Made by a program: the position numbers and the translations under genes. Positions 1-5,079 of a stretch of DNA of 5,140 nt are shown piece after piece. The notes beneath the pieces were generated by a model. That model saw nothing but the letters and a program-made list of their open reading frames with translations, did not search any database and was not told the DNA's origin. Source of the DNA: JBFJWU01 sp041623475 [NCBI: bacterium] (GTDB taxonomy: Bacteria; J088); NCBI GenBank assembly GCA_041623475.1, contig JBFJWU010000264.1:1-5140 (forward strand), written 5' to 3'. How positions within the stretch are numbered: the first letter of the stretch is position 1; each line of letters begins with the position of its first letter.

Positions 1-202
1 GGCGCTCGTCTCGCTCGCGAAGGCGAGGGCGAGCGATACGGCGATCCAGGTCGCGAACGAGGCCGTGCAGATGCACGGCGGGATCGGCATGACCGACGAG
101 CACGACATCGGCTTCTACCTGAAGCGCGCCCGCGTGGCGGAGATGACCTTTGGCGACGCCGCCTGGCACCGAAACCGCTGGGCGGAACTTGCCGGATACT
201 GA
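1..202 (+). CDS. Acyl-CoA dehydrogenase, C-terminal 66 residues (5' end outside window)
   Basis: The open frame starts at base 2, runs in from the left edge and ends at TGA 200-202. Its product would catalyse FAD-dependent alpha,beta-desaturation of an acyl-CoA thioester, passing electrons to an electron-transfer flavoprotein in the cytoplasm. The visible part is the end of the C-terminal helical domain. It shows the family motif AVQMHGGIGMTDEHDIGFYL at residues 21-40 of the fragment (the Q-x-H-G-G-x-G signature near the FAD and substrate site), followed by a K/R-rich helix and the sequence GDAAWHRNRWAELAGY at the end. The natural stop directly after this helix is normal for the family, so the gene is cut only by the window edge. 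About 91% of its third codon positions are G or C, clearly more than in the genes downstream. It lies 30 bases upstream of the flavin reductase gene with no visible terminator, so read-through is possible. Substrate class cannot be told from this part. Confidence 0.9.
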   Translation, partial: ALVSLAKARASDTAIQVANEAVQMHGGIGMTDEHDIGFYLKRARVAEMTFGDAAWHRNRWAELAGY

Positions 203-232: not shown

Positions 233-724
233 ATGGATATTACACAGGAATTCAAAGATGCTTTGTCGACGTGGGCGTCTGGTGTTACGGTGGTCAGCAC
301 CCGGGCGGATGGCCTGTTTTATGGCCTGACCGTATCCAGCTTTTCGTCCCTGTCACTGGACCCGCCGTTGGTTACTGTCTGCCTGGCCAATGCCAATCGA
401 ATGTCATCGATGATTGAGTCCGCCGGGCAGTTTACGGTATCCATACTCGCCCGCGACCAGGAGGATGTCTCCAACCATTTTGCGTCCCAGGGCCGTGAAC
501 CCGTTAGTGACTTGGCCGGCCAGGCCGGCGATTGGGAAGACGGAGACCTGCCCCGGTTGACGGGCGCGGTGGCTAACCTGGAATGCAACATGTACGAACT
601 GATTATCAAGGGTGACCACACGATTGCCGTCGGCGAAGTTCGCCGGGCACTGTCAAATTCCGATGCGTGGCCGTTGTTGTATTACCGCCGTGCTTACCGG
701 GGCGTTACCGGGGAACAAAATTGA
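233..724 (+). CDS. Flavin reductase-like domain protein (FMN-binding split barrel)
   Basis: The 163-residue product has the usual length of the flavin reductase-like family (HpaC and other small reductase components). These proteins bind FMN or FAD and use NAD(P)H to supply reduced flavin to a separate oxygenase in the cytoplasm. Family signs are the N-terminal helix followed by SGVTVVSTRADG (16-27), the core flavin-binding stretch GLTVSSFSSLSLDPPLVTVC (31-50), an NRMS motif (55-58), GDHTIAVGEV (127-136) where the conserved aspartate-histidine pair sits, and PLLYYRRAYR (147-156) near the end. The ATG start has an ideal ribosome binding site. The stop at 722-724 overlaps the TTG start of the next gene. 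No oxygenase partner is in the window, so what receives the reduced flavin is unknown. A role linked to the deazaflavin made by the last two genes is conceivable but is inference. The family assignment is firm; cofactor and partner are not. Confidence 0.88.
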   Translation: MDITQEFKDALSTWASGVTVVSTRADGLFYGLTVSSFSSLSLDPPLVTVCLANANRMSSMIESAGQFTVSILARDQEDVSNHFASQGREPVSDLAGQAGDWEDGDLPRLTGAVANLECNMYELIIKGDHTIAVGEVRRALSNSDAWPLLYYRRAYRGVTGEQN

Positions 725-1497
725 CGGCATCGCTGGATTTCAAAGGCAAATCTGTCCTCGTTACCGGCGGCGCTCGTGGCGTTGGCCGCGGGATAACGGA
801 ATCGTTCCTGGCTGCGGGCGCACAGGTGATGATCTGCGGCCGCAATGAACCGGAAAACCTGCCCGGCAGCGACGGTAACACCGCTCATTTTCACCCGACC
901 GATGTTCGCGACCCCGAACAAGTAAACGCCCTGGTCGACGCGACGGTCAAACGGCTTGGATCATTGGACATCCTGGTCAATAATGCCGGCGGCGCGCCCT
1001 TCGCCGAAGCGGCGACGGCGTCACCTCGGTTCTCCGAAAAGATTGTCCAGCTCAACCTGTTGGCACCACTCAATTGCGCCCAGGCCGCAAACCGGGTGAT
1101 GCAGGACAGGCAAGGCGGCGTCATTATCAACATCGCCAGCGTCAGCGGCCAACGCGCCTCACCGGGCACAGCTATTTACGGTGCTGCAAAAGCCGGATTG
1201 CTGAACCTGACCAGGTCCCTGGCCGTGGAATGGGCACCAAAGGTCCGGGTTGTTGCAATAACTGCCGGAATGATCCGGACAGAGCAGGCCCATCTTCATT
1301 ACGGCGATGACGCGGGAATCGCAGCTGTCGAAAAGACAGTGCCCTTGCAACGGTTGGGTCTGCCGCGGGACATCGGCGATACCTGCCTGTTCCTGGCCTC
1401 GCCGATGGCGTCCTATATCAGCGGCGGCTCGGTTATCGTCGACGGTGGGGGCGAACGTCCATCGTTCCTGGACGCGGCAAACGCCGAACAGTCTTGA
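721..1497 (+). CDS. Classical SDR-family oxidoreductase
   Basis: This encodes a cytoplasmic NAD(P)(H)-dependent Rossmann-fold dehydrogenase/reductase of 258 residues, the standard length for classical SDRs. Visible motifs are TGGARGVG (15-22, nucleotide binding), CGRN (39-42, an arginine after the second strand that suggests NADP(H)), NNAG (87-90), N112, S140 in NIASVSG, and Y153-x-x-x-K157 in YGAAK. The catalytic tetrad is therefore complete. The C-terminal SGGSVIVDGG (234-243) is typical. The usual N-x-x-x-P-G stretch after strand 6 reads VAITAG (178-183). I chose TTG at 721 because it gives the normal ten or so residues before the first strand and overlaps the previous stop as ATTGA, with a weak GGGGAA site at 710-715. 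An in-frame ATG at 667 would overlap the flavin reductase by 58 bases and add an unlikely leader. The substrate, probably an alcohol/ketone or hydroxyacyl-CoA pair, cannot be read from the sequence. Confidence 0.9.
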   Translation: MTASLDFKGKSVLVTGGARGVGRGITESFLAAGAQVMICGRNEPENLPGSDGNTAHFHPTDVRDPEQVNALVDATVKRLGSLDILVNNAGGAPFAEAATASPRFSEKIVQLNLLAPLNCAQAANRVMQDRQGGVIINIASVSGQRASPGTAIYGAAKAGLLNLTRSLAVEWAPKVRVVAITAGMIRTEQAHLHYGDDAGIAAVEKTVPLQRLGLPRDIGDTCLFLASPMASYISGGSVIVDGGGERPSFLDAANAEQS

Positions 1498-2321
1498 CGT
1501 CCCGGATCTTTCGTGAGGACCTGCTCGCCGGGCAGGTCGCCGTGATCACGGGTGGCGGCACAGGAATTGGCCGTGCAACCGCGTTGGAAATGGCAGCACT
1601 TGGTGCTGACATTGCCCTGGTCGGGCGCCGCCCCGAACCGCTTCGGCACACTCAGGACGAGATTGGGCAGCTTGGCCGCACGGCACTGGCCCTGCCCTGC
1701 GACATTCGCGATTACGATGCAGTCGGAAAGACCGTCGACGCGGTCCTCGACCGGTTTGGCCGGATCGACACATTGTTTAACAACGCCGGCGGCCAGTTTT
1801 TCCAACCGTCGACGGACTTGACACCCGGTGGTTGGCAAGCTGTGCTCAACACAAACCTCAGCGGGACGTTCTTTTTTACCCAGCACGTTGCCAACCGGGC
1901 AATGATTCCTTCGGGTGGCGGGGCCATCGTCAACATGGTGATTAACATGTGGCGTGGACAGCCGGCAGCGGTCCACTCAGCTGCCGCGCGAGCCGGGATC
2001 GACAACCTGACCAAATCGCTCAGCGTCGAATGGGCCGTTCACAAGATACGGATCAATGCCGTCGCTCCCGGAACTGTCCGTACCGAAGGACTTGACCAGT
2101 ACCCTGAAGATGTCGTCCGGCAACTGCGGTCGATAATTCCCCTGAAGCGCGAAGGCACTCCGGAAGAAATTGCCTGGCTCGTCTGTTACCTTGCATCTGA
2201 AGCCGGGGCCTGGATTACCGGCGAGACGATTTGCATTGACGGCGGGTCGCAGAATTGGGGCAGTATGTGGAACATACCGGACGATAACAGCGATATTCAA
2301 GGATACCGGCGCGACGAATGA
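1494..2321 (+). CDS. SDR of the trans-2-enoyl-CoA reductase (PECR) / AtuG type
   Basis: The product is a 275-residue Rossmann-fold protein with TGGGTGIG (19-26), VGRR (43-46, suggesting NADPH), NNAGGQF (96-102) and ITGETICIDGG (241-251). The catalytic region departs from classical SDRs. The serine position is V149 and the tyrosine position is S162, preceded by H161. The lysine position is R166, in AVHSAAARAGIDNLTKSL (159-176). This VHS-x-A-A-R-A-G pattern, with NNAGGQF, is what I recall from mammalian peroxisomal trans-2-enoyl-CoA reductase; related dienoyl-CoA reductases and the bacterial AtuG group (acyclic terpene catabolism) are close. The likely reaction is NADPH-dependent reduction of an enoyl- or dienoyl-CoA rather than alcohol oxidation. 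The start is TTG at 1494, overlapping the previous TGA as TTGA. No ATG precedes the nucleotide-binding motif, and no clear ribosome binding site is seen, so coupling is likely. Subfamily is fairly secure from motifs; substrate is inferred. Confidence 0.87.
   Translation: MTSRIFREDLLAGQVAVITGGGTGIGRATALEMAALGADIALVGRRPEPLRHTQDEIGQLGRTALALPCDIRDYDAVGKTVDAVLDRFGRIDTLFNNAGGQFFQPSTDLTPGGWQAVLNTNLSGTFFFTQHVANRAMIPSGGGAIVNMVINMWRGQPAAVHSAAARAGIDNLTKSLSVEWAVHKIRINAVAPGTVRTEGLDQYPEDVVRQLRSIIPLKREGTPEEIAWLVCYLASEAGAWITGETICIDGGSQNWGSMWNIPDDNSDIQGYRRDE
2299..2303 (+). promoter_or_regulatory. Possible ribosome binding site of cofG
   Basis: AAGGA lies inside the end of the second SDR gene, 14 bases before the ATG at 2318. 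The spacing is longer than ideal, so the ATGA overlap with the SDR stop may matter more for initiation. Confidence 0.35.
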
Positions 2322-3442
2322 TTACGGACCCACAGGACCTGCAGAAGTGCTCGACCGCGGAACTGGCCGCATCTGCGTGCGCCGTCCGTGACCATGTGTA
2401 CGGTAATACATTGACCTTTTCCCCTAAAGTATTCCTGCCAATAACTAATCTCTGCAGGAATCGTTGCGATTACTGTTCCTTTCGACGCTCATCCGGGGAC
2501 CCCGGCGAATGGACCATGACACCGGACCAGGTCATCGCCACACTTGACGACGCTGCCGCAAACGGGTGCATCGAAGCGCTGTTCTGCCTGGGCGACACGC
2601 CGGAAGGACCCTACCCTGCCTATCGCGAACTACTGGCCAAATGGGGATTCGAAACGACCGTTGATTATCTGGAATGGGCAGGAATCCAGGCGCTGGAACG
2701 TGGCCTGCTGCCCCACACCAATGCCGGCATCCTGACCCGGCAACAGATGGCCAGGTTGCGCCCGGTCAATGTCAGCCTCGGATTGATGCTTGAAAATATC
2801 AGCCCGCGAATGTGCGAGCCAGGAATGCCCCACCACAAGGCACCCGACAAGCGACCGCAGGTGCGATTGGACATGACGCGCGAAGCTGGCAAATTGCGGA
2901 TTCCATTTACATCGGGCCTGCTGCTCGGCATTGGCGAAACCGAAGCCGAACGGATTGACACACTGGTTGCGATCGATGAACTTCACCGTAATGGCGGACA
3001 TATTCAGGAAGTCATTATCCAGAATTTCCGGACCCGACCCGACATTGCGATGGCCAGCAGCCCGGAGCCCGAGGTCGACGCGATTGTCCGCACGGTCTCG
3101 ATGGCCAGACTGCTGCTGCCACCAGAGATCAGCGTTCAGGCCCCCCCGAACCTGAACCCTGCAGATGCCGGGTTGCTGATCCAGGCGGGCATCAACGATT
3201 TCGGCGGGATTTCGCCGGTCACACCTGACTACATCAACCACCTGCATCCGTGGCCAGTACTCGACCAGCTGGAATCAGAATGCCGTACAGCAGGGTTCGA
3301 ACTTCGGCCACGGCTGCCGATCTATGACCGGTACCTGGTACAGGACGATTTCCTGGACCAGTCCCTGTTGCCATTCGTTCAGCAGGCCCAGCGCGCGATC
3401 GAAATCGGCAATTTTGCCTGGCGCCAGCGAGCAGTCGCCTGA
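2318..3442 (+). CDS. cofG: F0 synthase subunit 1, radical SAM protein CofG
   Basis: CofG works with CofH to build 7,8-didemethyl-8-hydroxy-5-deazariboflavin (F0), the chromophore of coenzyme F420. It acts on the adduct made by CofH and closes the deazaflavin ring using a 5'-deoxyadenosyl radical. The 374-residue product has the radical-SAM iron-sulfur motif C46-x3-C50-x2-C53 in NLCRNRCDYCSF. It also has ALFCLGDTPEG (87-97), LGLMLENISPRM (154-165), the PGMPHHKAPDK stretch (168-178), PFTSGLLLGIGET (196-208), HIQEVIIQNFRTRPDIAMA (228-246), QAPPNL (274-279) and DFGGISPVTPDYIN (294-307). All match the N-terminal half of actinobacterial FbiC as I know it. The ATG overlaps the SDR stop as ATGA, and its own TGA shares one base with the cofH ATG. 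The first 35 residues precede the barrel and are not conserved in a way I recognise. Assignment is firm; whether the product goes on to F420 or stays as F0 is not shown. Confidence 0.96.
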   Translation: MITDPQDLQKCSTAELAASACAVRDHVYGNTLTFSPKVFLPITNLCRNRCDYCSFRRSSGDPGEWTMTPDQVIATLDDAAANGCIEALFCLGDTPEGPYPAYRELLAKWGFETTVDYLEWAGIQALERGLLPHTNAGILTRQQMARLRPVNVSLGLMLENISPRMCEPGMPHHKAPDKRPQVRLDMTREAGKLRIPFTSGLLLGIGETEAERIDTLVAIDELHRNGGHIQEVIIQNFRTRPDIAMASSPEPEVDAIVRTVSMARLLLPPEISVQAPPNLNPADAGLLIQAGINDFGGISPVTPDYINHLHPWPVLDQLESECRTAGFELRPRLPIYDRYLVQDDFLDQSLLPFVQQAQRAIEIGNFAWRQRAVA

Positions 3443-4722
3443 TGCTTACAGTCGACCAGACATTGTCCGGCGCGTCCAGCAAGATTGCCGTAATCCTCGA
3501 CCACGTGTTGTCCGGCCATGAACTGGACATCGACGGAGCCGAGCAACTTTTCCTGGCGACCGGCAACGACCTGCGCGCCCTGACCGCGACCGCCGACAAA
3601 TTGCGCTGCCAGCAGGTTGGCGAAGCTGTAACGTATGTCATCAATCGCAATATTAACTTTACAAATGTCTGCGTCAAATCCTGCCGGTTCTGTGCGTTTT
3701 CCCGGGATATTCGATCTGAATCGGGATACTTCCTGGATACGGACGCAATTGTTGAAAAAGTCGCACAGGCTGTTGAAATGGGCGCAACAGAAGTCTGCCT
3801 GCAAGCGGGACTGGCACCAACAGTTGACGGTCGGATATACATCGACCTGTGCCAGACACTGCACAACGCATTTCCCGACGTCCATCTGCATGCGTTCTCG
3901 CCGGAAGAGATCAAATACGGCTCGGTACGCGCCCGGATGACATTTCGGGAATATCTGTCGGAACTGAAGGATGCCGGATTGGGCAGCCTTCCCGGAACAT
4001 CCGCCGAGATTCTCGACGACGATCTGCGGACACGCATCTCACCGGGTCGAATTACGGTCGACGAATGGACGACGGTGATTCGCACAGCCCACGAACTGGG
4101 CATACCAACGACATCGACCATGATGTTCGGGCATATCGAGACTGCCGGCCATCGCGCACGTCATATGGCACTGTTGCGTGACATCCAGCGGGACACTGGC
4201 GGATTTACGGAATTCGTTCCACTGTCCTTTGTTCATTCTGAAGCACCATTGTTTGTCACTGGCGACATCCCCGGCGTCCAGCCTGGCCCGACAGGTAACG
4301 ATGTCCTGCGTCTGTACGCGATTGCCCGGCTGATGCTGGGCGCCACGTTCACAAACATCCAGGCATCCTGGGTCAAAGAAGGCCTGCGCGGTGCCCAGTT
4401 GCTGCTGGATGCGGGCGTCAATGATCTGGGCGGCACCCTGATGAACGAAAGCATCTCAACCAAGGCCGGTGCCAGCAACGGCCAGATGGTCACCCCCGCC
4501 CAGTTACGCCAGTTAGTCCGCGACGCCGGCCGGGTCCCCGTTGAACGCACCACCCTGTACGGCGAGCGCCATCGCTTCCCGGAACAGTACACACCTGGCG
4601 AAGAAGACCTTGATCCGTTGAACCGGGTCACCGACACCGAACAAACCTTTGGCTCGTACGACGAACTGGTCAACAACCCGAAATACCATTACGACTTTGA
4701 AGAATACCGGGTAAAGAATTGA
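3442..4722 (+). CDS. cofH: F0 synthase subunit 2, radical SAM protein CofH
   Basis: CofH uses S-adenosylmethionine to generate a radical from tyrosine and joins it to 5-amino-6-(D-ribitylamino)uracil, giving the intermediate that CofG turns into F0. The iron-sulfur motif is C77-x3-C81-x2-C84 in NVCVKSCRFCAF, after VINRNINFT (66-74). Other family motifs are ATEVCLQAG (115-123), HLHAFSPEEI (148-157), LPGTSAEILDDDLR (183-196), TTSTMMFGHIE (223-233), GGFTEFVPLSFVHSEAPL (253-270), the QASWVKEG stretch (307-314) and GVNDLGGTLMNESIS (325-339). This order matches the C-terminal half of FbiC. The start ATG at 3442-3444 shares its A with the cofG stop (TGATG), so the two subunits are probably made in equal amounts. 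At 426 residues it carries roughly 50 residues (375-426) past the last motif I recognise, rich in acidic and aromatic residues and ending YHYDFEEYRVKN. It is the last gene of the block. Confidence 0.96.
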   Translation: MLTVDQTLSGASSKIAVILDHVLSGHELDIDGAEQLFLATGNDLRALTATADKLRCQQVGEAVTYVINRNINFTNVCVKSCRFCAFSRDIRSESGYFLDTDAIVEKVAQAVEMGATEVCLQAGLAPTVDGRIYIDLCQTLHNAFPDVHLHAFSPEEIKYGSVRARMTFREYLSELKDAGLGSLPGTSAEILDDDLRTRISPGRITVDEWTTVIRTAHELGIPTTSTMMFGHIETAGHRARHMALLRDIQRDTGGFTEFVPLSFVHSEAPLFVTGDIPGVQPGPTGNDVLRLYAIARLMLGATFTNIQASWVKEGLRGAQLLLDAGVNDLGGTLMNESISTKAGASNGQMVTPAQLRQLVRDAGRVPVERTTLYGERHRFPEQYTPGEEDLDPLNRVTDTEQTFGSYDELVNNPKYHYDFEEYRVKN

Positions 4723-4730
4723 GTATTTGC

Positions 4731-4810
4731 CACAGAGGCACAGAGGAAAGACAGAGAGGAAGCAGAGAGAAAGACATTTTGCACCATGGGGACACGGGAG
4801 AGCGCGGGGA
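4731..4810. repeat. Purine-rich degenerate repeat based on CACAGAGG
   Basis: Two exact tandem copies of CACAGAGG occupy 4731-4746. They are followed by degraded purine-rich variants (ACAGAGAGG, GCAGAGAG) to about 4775, then by CACCATGGGGACACGGGAGAG at 4782-4802, which looks like a second diverged copy of the same theme. From memory, similar sequence (CCACAGAGGCACAGAG and relatives) occurs as dispersed intergenic repeats in many unrelated bacteria, where its translation is often annotated as small spurious proteins. Family membership and copy number in this genome cannot be checked here. Confidence 0.65.
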
Positions 4811-5045: not shown

Positions 5046-5079
5046 GTTTTCCTTTTTGCCGCGCAGCAAAAAGGAAAAC
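5046..5079. repeat. Perfect 14-bp inverted repeat (hairpin), loop CGCGCA
   Basis: GTTTTCCTTTTTGC at 5046-5059 is exactly complementary to GCAAAAAGGAAAAC at 5066-5079, around a six-base loop. The stem is A/T-rich with poly-T/poly-A segments. No T-run follows it on either strand (CCCCGG follows on +, AAGAAACG on -), so it does not fit an intrinsic terminator. It is more like a palindromic repeat unit or a remnant end of a small mobile element. Confidence 0.7.

What the first reader, a model, noticed from the sequence alone, without database searches (positions are those of the whole stretch)
233..4722. F0 (deazaflavin) synthase genes in one operon with a flavin reductase and two SDRs
cofG and cofH lie at the end of a five-gene overlapping block whose other members are NAD(P)H- and flavin-linked redox enzymes, not F420 biosynthesis genes. 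Such tight coupling suggests that deazaflavin supply is needed for one particular pathway. No cofC, cofD or cofE is visible, so the module might use F0 itself or make F420 from genes elsewhere. The gene families are read directly from motifs; the link between F0 and the redox enzymes is inference.
Basis: partly seen in the sequence, partly recalled or inferred. Interest (0 to 1): 0.65.

Follow-up and report, generated by a model that had tools for sequence, protein, structure and literature searches.

The report
F420 cofactor genes in steroid-degradation operon
Two genes that make the core of the rare redox cofactor F420 sit at the end of an operon whose other genes look like parts of a bacterial steroid-breakdown pathway, which suggests that these uncultured myxobacteria make F420 to help eat steroids.

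Summary
In detail: FlvR, SDR1, SDR2, cofG and cofH (233-4722) overlap by 1-4 bases behind the 3' end of an acyl-CoA dehydrogenase (2-202). CofG and CofH pass curated cut-offs. No genome is held for the window; its CofG falls in a fully supported, almost purely Myxococcota clade.

In relatives the same gene types stand in steroid-degradation clusters: SDR1 beside echA20/ipdABC, twice directly before cofG-cofH; the ACAD after hsaG-hsaF-ACAD_L, once directly before cofG; SDR2 overlapping hsaF. Only the SDR1 evidence is phylum-wide. Relatives also carry cofC, cofD, cofE, an F420:NADP reductase and an Rv3520c-family F420 enzyme. CofG and IpdA co-occur (84 of 112 CofG genomes; 14 of 265 others) and are linked only among CofGs most like the window's (10 of 30 versus 0 of 82).

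Best reading: F0/F420 supply built into a steroid-degradation operon. Membership is inferred from relatives, the F420 need more so. Against: no steroid marker in the window; exact order not found elsewhere; 8 of those 30 genomes lack IpdA and HsaA; flavin reductase and ACAD fragment have near-equal relatives elsewhere.

The parts
2..202 (+). 3' end of an acyl-CoA dehydrogenase gene (last 66 codons), ACAD_S type
   Evidence: PF00441 43.9 bits. Best relatives among the ORFs of the fetched loci compared: L187 69%, L184 66%, L001 63%, which stand after hsaG-hsaF-ACAD_L (for L184 across the L205/L184 boundary); the others there 55% or less. But in plasmids a 62% relative lies on a Cupriavidus megaplasmid with no hsa/ipd gene within 9 kb, and 58% ones in Sulfitobacter. 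First ~150 bases have a different codon composition.
233..724 (+). flavin reductase (HpaC/HsaB-like small component)
   Evidence: PF01613 136.9 bits; NF042921 144 and HsaB model NF045630 102 bits, both under their cut-offs. In 22 chosen genomes the best relatives, G012 50% and G354 47%, stand in the order ACAD_S-ACAD_L-FlvR; weaker ones stand beside HsaA in G254 and G303 and near SDR1 in G011 and G076. Others of 45-49% are outside steroid clusters.
721..1497 (+). SDR1, NAD(P)-dependent short-chain dehydrogenase with canonical YxxxK, TTG start
   Evidence: NF005893 392.7 bits, cut-off 255; YGAAK at residue 153; orthologues 59-65% beside echA20-like genes in G001, G012, G007; best orthologue, 71% in G233, lies 10.8 kb from IpdA.
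1494..2321 (+). SDR2, SDR of the trans-2-enoyl-CoA reductase kind, without YxxxK, TTG start
   Evidence: Nearest solved structures 1yxm (peroxisomal trans 2-enoyl CoA reductase) and 6lln (citronellol catabolism), which share the HS-AAR-G motif at the YxxxK position. Best relative in 22 chosen genomes, 61%, overlaps hsaF by 4 bp in an hsaACDE-GF operon of G316.
2318..3442 (+). cofG, 7,8-didemethyl-8-hydroxy-5-deazariboflavin (F0) synthase subunit 1
   Evidence: TIGR03550 408.5 bits over cut-off 213.35; CRNRCDYC cluster; in a 33-row clade of Myxococcota-type CofG with 100/100 support.
3442..4722 (+). cofH, F0 synthase subunit 2
   Evidence: TIGR03551 463.4 bits over cut-off 374.1 and PF19288; CVKSCRFC cluster.

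Best explanation
The window is part of a steroid (sterol ring) degradation supercluster of an uncultured Myxococcota bacterium, in which the F0 synthase genes cofG-cofH were placed at the end of a catabolic operon. SHOWN: gene identities and overlaps, and that in relatives the same gene types sit in hsa/ipd clusters next to cof genes. INFERRED: (1) the ACAD, SDR1 and SDR2 handle CoA-thioester or hydroxy/keto intermediates of the steroid rings, and FlvR supplies reduced flavin, possibly to an HsaA-type monooxygenase; (2) CofG/CofH make F0 when the pathway is induced; (3) CofC, CofD and CofE, encoded elsewhere in the cluster in relatives, turn F0 into F420, and NpdG reduces it with NADPH; (4) an F420-dependent luciferase-like enzyme of the Rv3520c family (TIGR03559) spends or regenerates F420H2 in a step on the steroid or its side chain. 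The FlvR and SDRs themselves are ordinary flavin/NAD(P) enzymes and need no F420.
For: Linkage: L187 (G316): HsaA-, HsaC-, HsaD-, HsaE-, HsaG-, HsaF-like, ACAD_L, ACAD_S overlapping CofG, CofH, then CofC, CofD, CofE, LLM. L205+L184 (G354, one contig): HsaA-C-D-E-G-F-ACAD_L, ACAD_S ... thiolase-ACAD-ACAD-Ech-IpdC-IpdB-IpdA-EchA20 | SDR1-CofG-CofH | CofD-CofE-NpdG-LLM. L014 (G012): SDR1-CofG-CofH beside EchA20-IpdA-IpdB-IpdC. L203 (G007): SDR1-CofE-CofD-CofC divergent from EchA20. Seven genomes of one clade with cofG within 45 kb of IpdA and/or SDR1. Markers: IpdA-like 330.7 bits to 6co6/6co9 against 78 for glutaconate CoA-transferase (that these entries are IpdAB is recalled); HsaA-like 330 bits to 2rfq '3-HSA hydroxylase' and 429-448 bits to NF045629, just under its cut-off of 450. 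Over their cut-offs in relatives: CofC, CofD, CofE, NpdG and the LLM's TIGR03559 in L187, L168, L184. Counts: CofG with IpdA 84 of 112, IpdA without CofG 14 of 265; SDR1 with IpdA 86 of 92; window-like CofG linked in 10 of 30, the rest in 0 of 82. Other class: in Gammaproteobacteria 3 of 5 IpdA genomes carry CofG, 11 of 345 others do, p = 5e-4. Literature (passages): KstR2 table with Rv3548c/Rv3549c listed before echA20-ipdAB, KstR motif between Rv3520c and Rv3521, Rv3520c listed among cholesterol genes, cofC/D/E of Sterolibacterium in a figure legend on cholesterol-degradation genes.
Against: No hsa, ipd or kst gene lies in the window; membership rests on relatives, and the comparisons for ACAD (fetched loci only), SDR2 and FlvR (22 chosen genomes, nearly all with steroid genes) are biased towards steroid contexts. 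Outside them the ACAD fragment reaches 62% on a Cupriavidus megaplasmid without hsa/ipd genes within 9 kb and 58% in Sulfitobacter beta-oxidation-type genes; FlvR has 7 relatives of 45-49% outside steroid clusters and matches in 1,057 plasmid records, best listed 44%; 8 of 9 further SDR2 relatives (48-52%) inspected are outside. The exact order was not found elsewhere. Of 30 genomes with window-like CofG 9 lack IpdA, and 8 of those also lack HsaA. The LLM is in 5 of those 9, in G003, G005, G006, and beside cofGH in two Gammaproteobacteria without IpdA (L280, L039), so F420 and the LLM serve something else too. Seven of the 10 linked genomes are one clade; the 45 kb limit was set after seeing the distances. 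Co-occurrence is not corrected for kinship. In the three Gammaproteobacteria with both genes they are on different contigs. The window's SDR1 groups with ACAD/MaoC-linked SDR1 genes, not with the cof-linked pair (unsettled bootstrap).
Confidence: 0.6

Rival explanations
1. General F420 supply, co-located by history. cofGH make F420 for many enzymes, and their place in the operon reflects rearrangement or convenient expression rather than a steroid step that needs F420.
For: 8 of 30 genomes with window-like CofG have neither IpdA nor HsaA; the LLM occurs in genomes without steroid markers; in the other 82 genomes, 63 have IpdA but cofG is linked to it in 0.
Against: Several different arrangements bring cof genes next to steroid genes (SDR1-cofGH, ACAD_S-cofGH, SDR1-cofEDC, and the window's own order), with overlapping stops and starts.
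Confidence: 0.24
2. The operon degrades another polycyclic, terpenoid or aromatic compound, or fatty acids, through CoA intermediates, and the steroid likeness comes from shared enzyme families.
For: ACADs, SDRs and flavin reductases are widespread; IpdE2 and HsaB models score far below their cut-offs; the ACAD fragment, FlvR and SDR2 have fairly close relatives in other contexts; SDR2 also resembles a citronellol-catabolism protein.
Against: SDR1, the one gene searched phylum-wide, tracks IpdA (86 of 92); the top SDR2, ACAD and FlvR matches of the Myxococcota examined all lead to genomes with hsa/ipd genes; the markers match solved steroid enzymes best.
Confidence: 0.12
3. F0 itself is the product used, for instance as an antenna chromophore of a photolyase.
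For: No cofC, cofD or cofE in the window. F0 as a photolyase chromophore is recalled.
Against: Relatives with similar cofGH carry cofC/D/E and npdG next to it. Nothing in the operon resembles a photolyase. Photolyases were not searched for.
Confidence: 0.03

Closest known systems
F0 synthase CofG/CofH (TIGR03550, TIGR03551; fused as FbiC/CofGH in others)
   Same: Both subunits pass curated cut-offs, with the CxxxCxxC clusters.
   Different: Separate genes at the end of a catabolic operon. In the four plasmid regions viewed (Croceicoccus, Novosphingobium, Aromatoleum, Paraburkholderia) one long ORF holds both, near npdG and other cof genes; most gammaproteobacterial loci also show one long ORF.
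KstR2 regulon of actinobacteria (Rv3548c, Rv3549c, echA20, ipdAB, ipdC), HIP degradation
   Same: SDR1-type genes divergent from echA20-ipdA-ipdB-ipdC in Myxococcota, as Rv3549c is listed next to echA20 in the published table (strands of the Rv genes recalled).
   Different: That paper does not mention F420; here cof genes lie in the cluster. Whether SDR1 is Rv3549c by descent was not tested.
Rv3520c family of F420-dependent LLM enzymes (TIGR03559)
   Same: The LLM beside the cof genes passes the cut-off in the three loci tested. Rv3520c has a KstR motif upstream and is listed with cholesterol degradation.
   Different: No LLM in the window; in the passages I saw its reaction is not given.
Sterolibacterium denitrificans cholesterol cluster with SEDNCHOL_10763-10765
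   Same: CofC, CofD and CofE next to an acyl-CoA synthetase, steroid isomerase and ACADs, listed in a figure legend.
   Different: [quoted passage not shown] cofGH not seen in the passage; sequences not compared here.

Membership tests
F0 synthase (CofG + CofH) | Score over the curated cut-offs of TIGR03550 and TIGR03551 | tested here: met
   408.5 over 213.35; 463.4 over 374.1
F0 synthase (CofG + CofH) | Radical-SAM CxxxCxxC cluster in each subunit | tested here: met
   CRNRCDYC, CVKSCRFC
F0 synthase (CofG + CofH) | Makes F0 from tyrosine and 5-amino-6-ribitylaminouracil | not testable with these tools
   Needs enzyme assay or fluorescence
Complete F420 biosynthesis | cofC, cofD, cofE in the same genome | tested here: inconclusive
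   Not in the window and no genome held. In relatives over cut-off: CofC L187 and L001, CofD L014 and L203, CofE L187 and L203, NpdG L184 and L168
Steroid-degradation (9,10-seco / HIP) gene cluster | Signature genes hsaA/hsaC/hsaD or ipdA/ipdB/echA20 in the cluster | tested here: inconclusive
   None in the 5,140 bases; present around the same gene types in G316, G354, G012, G001, G007
Steroid-degradation (9,10-seco / HIP) gene cluster | Window genes group with steroid-cluster members rather than with generic paralogues | tested here: inconclusive
   SDR1: met (phylum-wide, 86 of 92 with IpdA). SDR2: 61% in an hsa operon against 52% or less, 22 chosen genomes. ACAD fragment: 63-69% against 55% or less in fetched loci, but 62% in an unrelated plasmid. 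FlvR: 50 and 47% against 45-49% outside
HsaB reductase | Score over NF045630 cut-off (230 bits) | tested here: not met
   102.1 bits; so called HsaB-like by context only
IpdE2 acyl-CoA dehydrogenase | Score over NF050027 cut-off (450 bits) | tested here: not met
   43.3 bits on the 66 aa in the window, 144.6 for the full L001 relative
Trans-2-enoyl-CoA reductase (PECR) type SDR | Best structural relatives and shared active-site motif without YxxxK | tested here: met
   1yxm best hit, 210 bits, motif shared; 6lln scores the same; activity not tested

The most novel reading that the evidence does not exclude
Steroid ring degradation in uncultured Myxococcota, and perhaps in SAR86 and mycobacteria, contains a so far unassigned step that depends on F420 and is catalysed by the Rv3520c-family LLM enzyme. 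Cofactor biosynthesis has been drawn into the catabolic operon more than once because the pathway cannot run without it.
Probability: 0.3. Interest if true: 0.8.

Novelty: new variant of a known kind. Interest (0 to 1): 0.6.

Why it matters
F420 is known for methanogenesis, antibiotic making and prodrug activation (recalled), while its everyday metabolic partners in aerobic bacteria are often unknown. Placing its biosynthesis inside steroid catabolism gives a concrete pathway to test. It would also give a lead on the function of the Rv3520c family and on KstR2 genes whose steps are stated to be open, and would add uncultured Myxococcota to the likely environmental steroid degraders.

Tried and rejected
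F0-only use: set aside because relatives carry cofC/D/E/npdG. Exact five-gene synteny: not seen in fetched loci, not searched for exhaustively; pairs and triples were used instead. A longest-ORF caller gave wrong genes in high-GC loci, so I wrote a composition-based caller; its gene starts are approximate, and the gene labels are best BLAST matches to my seed proteins, of which only those named with a call were checked by profile. NCBIfam gave no family for the IpdA- and IpdB-like proteins of L014, FabK below cut-off for the IpdC-like one, and nothing or a weak match for the Rieske proteins labelled 'KshA?'. NF005893 at E <= 1e-80 rang in none of 14 control genomes, so SDR1 could not be tied to a named actinobacterial gene that way. 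An EchA20 structure search gave nothing at E <= 1e-40. Plasmid cof operons: Croceicoccus and Novosphingobium ones lie near LLM, SDR and FAD genes, the latter also near Rieske genes and a FAD protein resembling 3-ketosteroid dehydrogenases below cut-off; Aromatoleum and Paraburkholderia ones lie near transposases and other genes: suggestive at most. Gammaproteobacteria: in the 14 cofG loci (13 genomes) annotated no ipd or hsa label above 30% identity appears; the steroid link there is co-occurrence only, apart from a KstD-like gene and an SDR1 relative near the SAR86 cof genes. The last two lines are spoiled by a dictionary bug; the earlier lines are sound, and the true number of window-like-CofG genomes without IpdA is 30 - 21 = 9. 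'Clade A/B' there is a split by identity (54% or more), not a tree; G089 (54%, partial match) was put in the lower group by hand before counting.

Literature: ten searches, of which I saw titles and abstract starts; of the papers opened I saw only the passages found, none in full. None of the titles or abstract starts describes F420 biosynthesis genes in steroid clusters; a figure legend in PMC6678751 lists three. PMC5790920 has no mention of Deltaproteobacteria, Myxococc- or F420, PMC4810484 none of myxobacteria, PMC11061730 none of F420. Subscription papers are not held, so absence in print is not shown.

Change on re-checking: searches were made to test my own claims. CofC, CofD, CofE, NpdG and HsaA labels held (HsaA still just under its cut-off); the ACAD fragment turned out less specific than I had written, so the best explanation went from 0.66 to 0.60 and the novel case from 0.33 to 0.30.
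Full report
WHAT IS THERE. The window carries six genes on the + strand: the 3' end of an acyl-CoA dehydrogenase (2-202), a flavin reductase (233-724), two short-chain dehydrogenases (721-1497 and 1494-2321), cofG (2318-3442) and cofH (3442-4722). The last five overlap by 4, 4, 4 and 1 bases. CofG and CofH pass the curated cut-offs by wide margins and have their CxxxCxxC clusters. SDR1 has the usual YxxxK; SDR2 lacks it but shares the motif at that place with peroxisomal trans 2-enoyl CoA reductase (1yxm) and with 6lln, its two best structural relatives.

WHOSE DNA. No genome is held for the window. The CofG tree (49 rows from fetched loci) puts it inside a 33-row clade with 100/100 support, made of Myxococcota MAGs, MAGs titled delta-proteobacteria, genomes from the phylum of G012, and one MAG labelled cyanobacterial (L002); the window has no close sister. 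Of the ten best CofH relatives (55-61%) five are titled Myxococcales or Polyangia, two delta proteobacterium, and one each Synechococcaceae, Rokuibacteriota and Acidobacteria.

WHICH PATHWAY. I asked of each window gene where its nearest relatives stand. SDR1 was searched in 377 genomes of the phylum: 92 have it at E <= 1e-60, 86 of these 92 also have IpdA, and 12 IpdA genomes lack SDR1. Its best match (71%, G233) lies 10.8 kb from IpdA. Orthologues of 59-65% stand next to or divergent from echA20-like genes in G001, G012 and G007. The other three genes were compared in biased sets. ACAD, against ORFs of the loci used: 69% to the gene that follows hsaG-hsaF-ACAD_L and overlaps cofG in G316 (L187), 66% to the one in G354, 63% to the one in L001, all others 55% or less. 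But against plasmids the same 66 residues reach 62% on a Cupriavidus megaplasmid, with no hsa/ipd match within 9 kb, and 58% in Sulfitobacter, in an ACAD-ACAD-SDR-SDR-thiolase row. SDR2, in 22 chosen genomes: 61% to a gene overlapping the end of an hsaA-C-D-E-G-F operon in G316 (HsaA, HsaG and HsaF of this locus tested); of nine further relatives of 48-52% inspected, eight lie outside steroid clusters. In plasmids the five best-listed are 43-46%. FlvR, in the same 22 genomes: 50% and 47% to genes after an ACAD pair in G012 and G354, the latter on the contig of the steroid cluster and near a KstD-like gene (below cut-off), the former on a 6.9 kb contig without ipd or hsa genes; seven relatives of 45-49% lie outside steroid clusters; two of 34-37% lie beside HsaA; two of 37-39% near SDR1 in G011 and G076. 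FlvR relatives are common on plasmids (1,057 records, best listed 44%). SDR1 is thus the strong evidence, SDR2 and ACAD moderate, FlvR weak.

ARE THE MARKERS WHAT I CALL THEM? IpdA-like of L184 matches 6co6/6co9/6coj/6con at 325-331 bits and glutaconate CoA-transferase at 78; these entries are titled CoA-transferase alpha subunit, and that they are IpdAB is recalled. NCBIfam has no hit for the IpdA- and IpdB-like proteins of L014, and FabK below cut-off for the IpdC-like one, in line with the published table that gives FabK as IpdC's best hit. HsaA-like matches 2rfq, named 3-HSA hydroxylase, at 330 bits and the HsaA model at 429-448 bits with a cut-off of 450. HsaG- and HsaF-like pass the acetaldehyde dehydrogenase and 4-hydroxy-2-oxovalerate aldolase cut-offs. 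HsaC and HsaD models score second best and best but below cut-off. EchA20-like passes NF005925 in L014 and L203; the label EchA20 rests on its place beside ipdABC.

COF GENES IN STEROID CLUSTERS. L187 (G316): hsa genes, ACAD_L, ACAD_S, cofG, cofH, then cofC, cofD, cofE and an LLM; IpdA and SDR1 lie 35-37 kb away on the same contig. L205/L184 (G354): hsa genes, ipd genes, SDR1-cofG-cofH, cofD, cofE, npdG and LLM on one contig. L014 (G012): SDR1-cofG-cofH between ipd genes and cofD. L203 (G007): SDR1-cofE-cofD-cofC divergent from echA20. Seven genomes of one CofG clade (G036, G041, G158, G196, G206, G393, G396) hold cofG within 45 kb of IpdA or SDR1. The LLM passes TIGR03559 (Rv3520c family) in L187, L168 and L184.

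COUNTS AND CONTROLS. In 377 genomes CofG occurs in 112, IpdA in 98, both in 84; 14 of the 265 without CofG have IpdA. These counts are not corrected for kinship. I split CofG by identity into window-like (54% or more, 30 genomes) and the rest (82). IpdA or SDR1 lies within 45 kb of cofG in 10 of 30 and in 0 of 82; the limit was chosen after seeing distances of up to 37 kb. Many assemblies are fragmentary, so 10 of 30 may be an undercount. Against an exclusive link: 9 of the 30 lack IpdA and 8 of these also lack HsaA, while HsaA is in 20 of the 21 with IpdA; the LLM is in 18 of those 21 and in 5 of the 9. In 350 Gammaproteobacteria CofG is in 14, IpdA in 5, both in 3 (p = 5e-4), on different contigs.

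MECHANISM. Most likely CofG/CofH provide F0, completed to F420 by CofC, CofD and CofE and reduced by NpdG, for an F420-dependent enzyme of the steroid pathway, the Rv3520c-type LLM being the best candidate. Rv3520c/Rv3521 share a KstR motif (PMC1995591, passages); a 2026 review and a 2019 comparison list Rv3520c, an F420-dependent oxidoreductase, with cholesterol degradation (PMC12855090 and PMC6429209, passages). The FlvR and SDRs are not expected to use F420. What the LLM does is unknown to me; oxidation of a hydroxyl or reduction of an enone would fit the wider family (recalled).

KNOWN OR NEW. The parts are known families. The combination, F420 biosynthesis inside steroid-degradation operons of Myxococcota, appears in none of the titles and abstract starts from ten searches; the nearest is a figure legend that lists cofC, cofD and cofE among Sterolibacterium cholesterol genes (PMC6678751, passages). 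I rate it a new variant of a known kind.

Noticed in passing
window 1-150: Codon composition break: 1 of the first 48 ACAD codons ends in A or T, against at least 7 in each of 1,261 windows of 48 codons in the other five genes. The last 19 codons are of local type, so the contig may be a chimera of related strains, or recombined, inside the ACAD gene.
   Followed up: partly
window 5046-5079: Nearly perfect inverted repeat, arms of 17 bases with no loop (94% complementary), 324 bp after cofH; function unknown.
   Followed up: no
window 4731-4746: CACAGAGGCACAGAGG just after cofH looks like a dispersed repeat (impression from memory); no exact copy in the 285 loci then held.
   Followed up: partly
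L002 8829-11257: A MAG labelled Synechococcaceae cyanobacterium carries a cofG-cofH pair whose CofG groups with Myxococcota: contamination or transfer.
   Followed up: no
L204 (G024, SAR86), 2290-13906: A SAR86 genome has cofGH, cofD, cofE and npdG within 12 kb of a 3-ketosteroid dehydrogenase-like gene (below cut-off) and an SDR1 relative (45%), and carries IpdA on another contig.
   Followed up: partly
L215 (Croceicoccus plasmid), L217 (Novosphingobium pSA2): Plasmid-borne F420 operons with LLM, SDR and FAD genes and NTF2-family proteins nearby, in L217 also Rieske genes and a KstD-like protein below cut-off; possibly other F420-linked catabolic clusters.
   Followed up: partly
L168 4277-5152 and the same place in L170, L171: A second F420 LLM (TIGR03619 type, 206.5 bits in L168, the only one tested) lies directly upstream of and overlapping cofG.
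   Followed up: no
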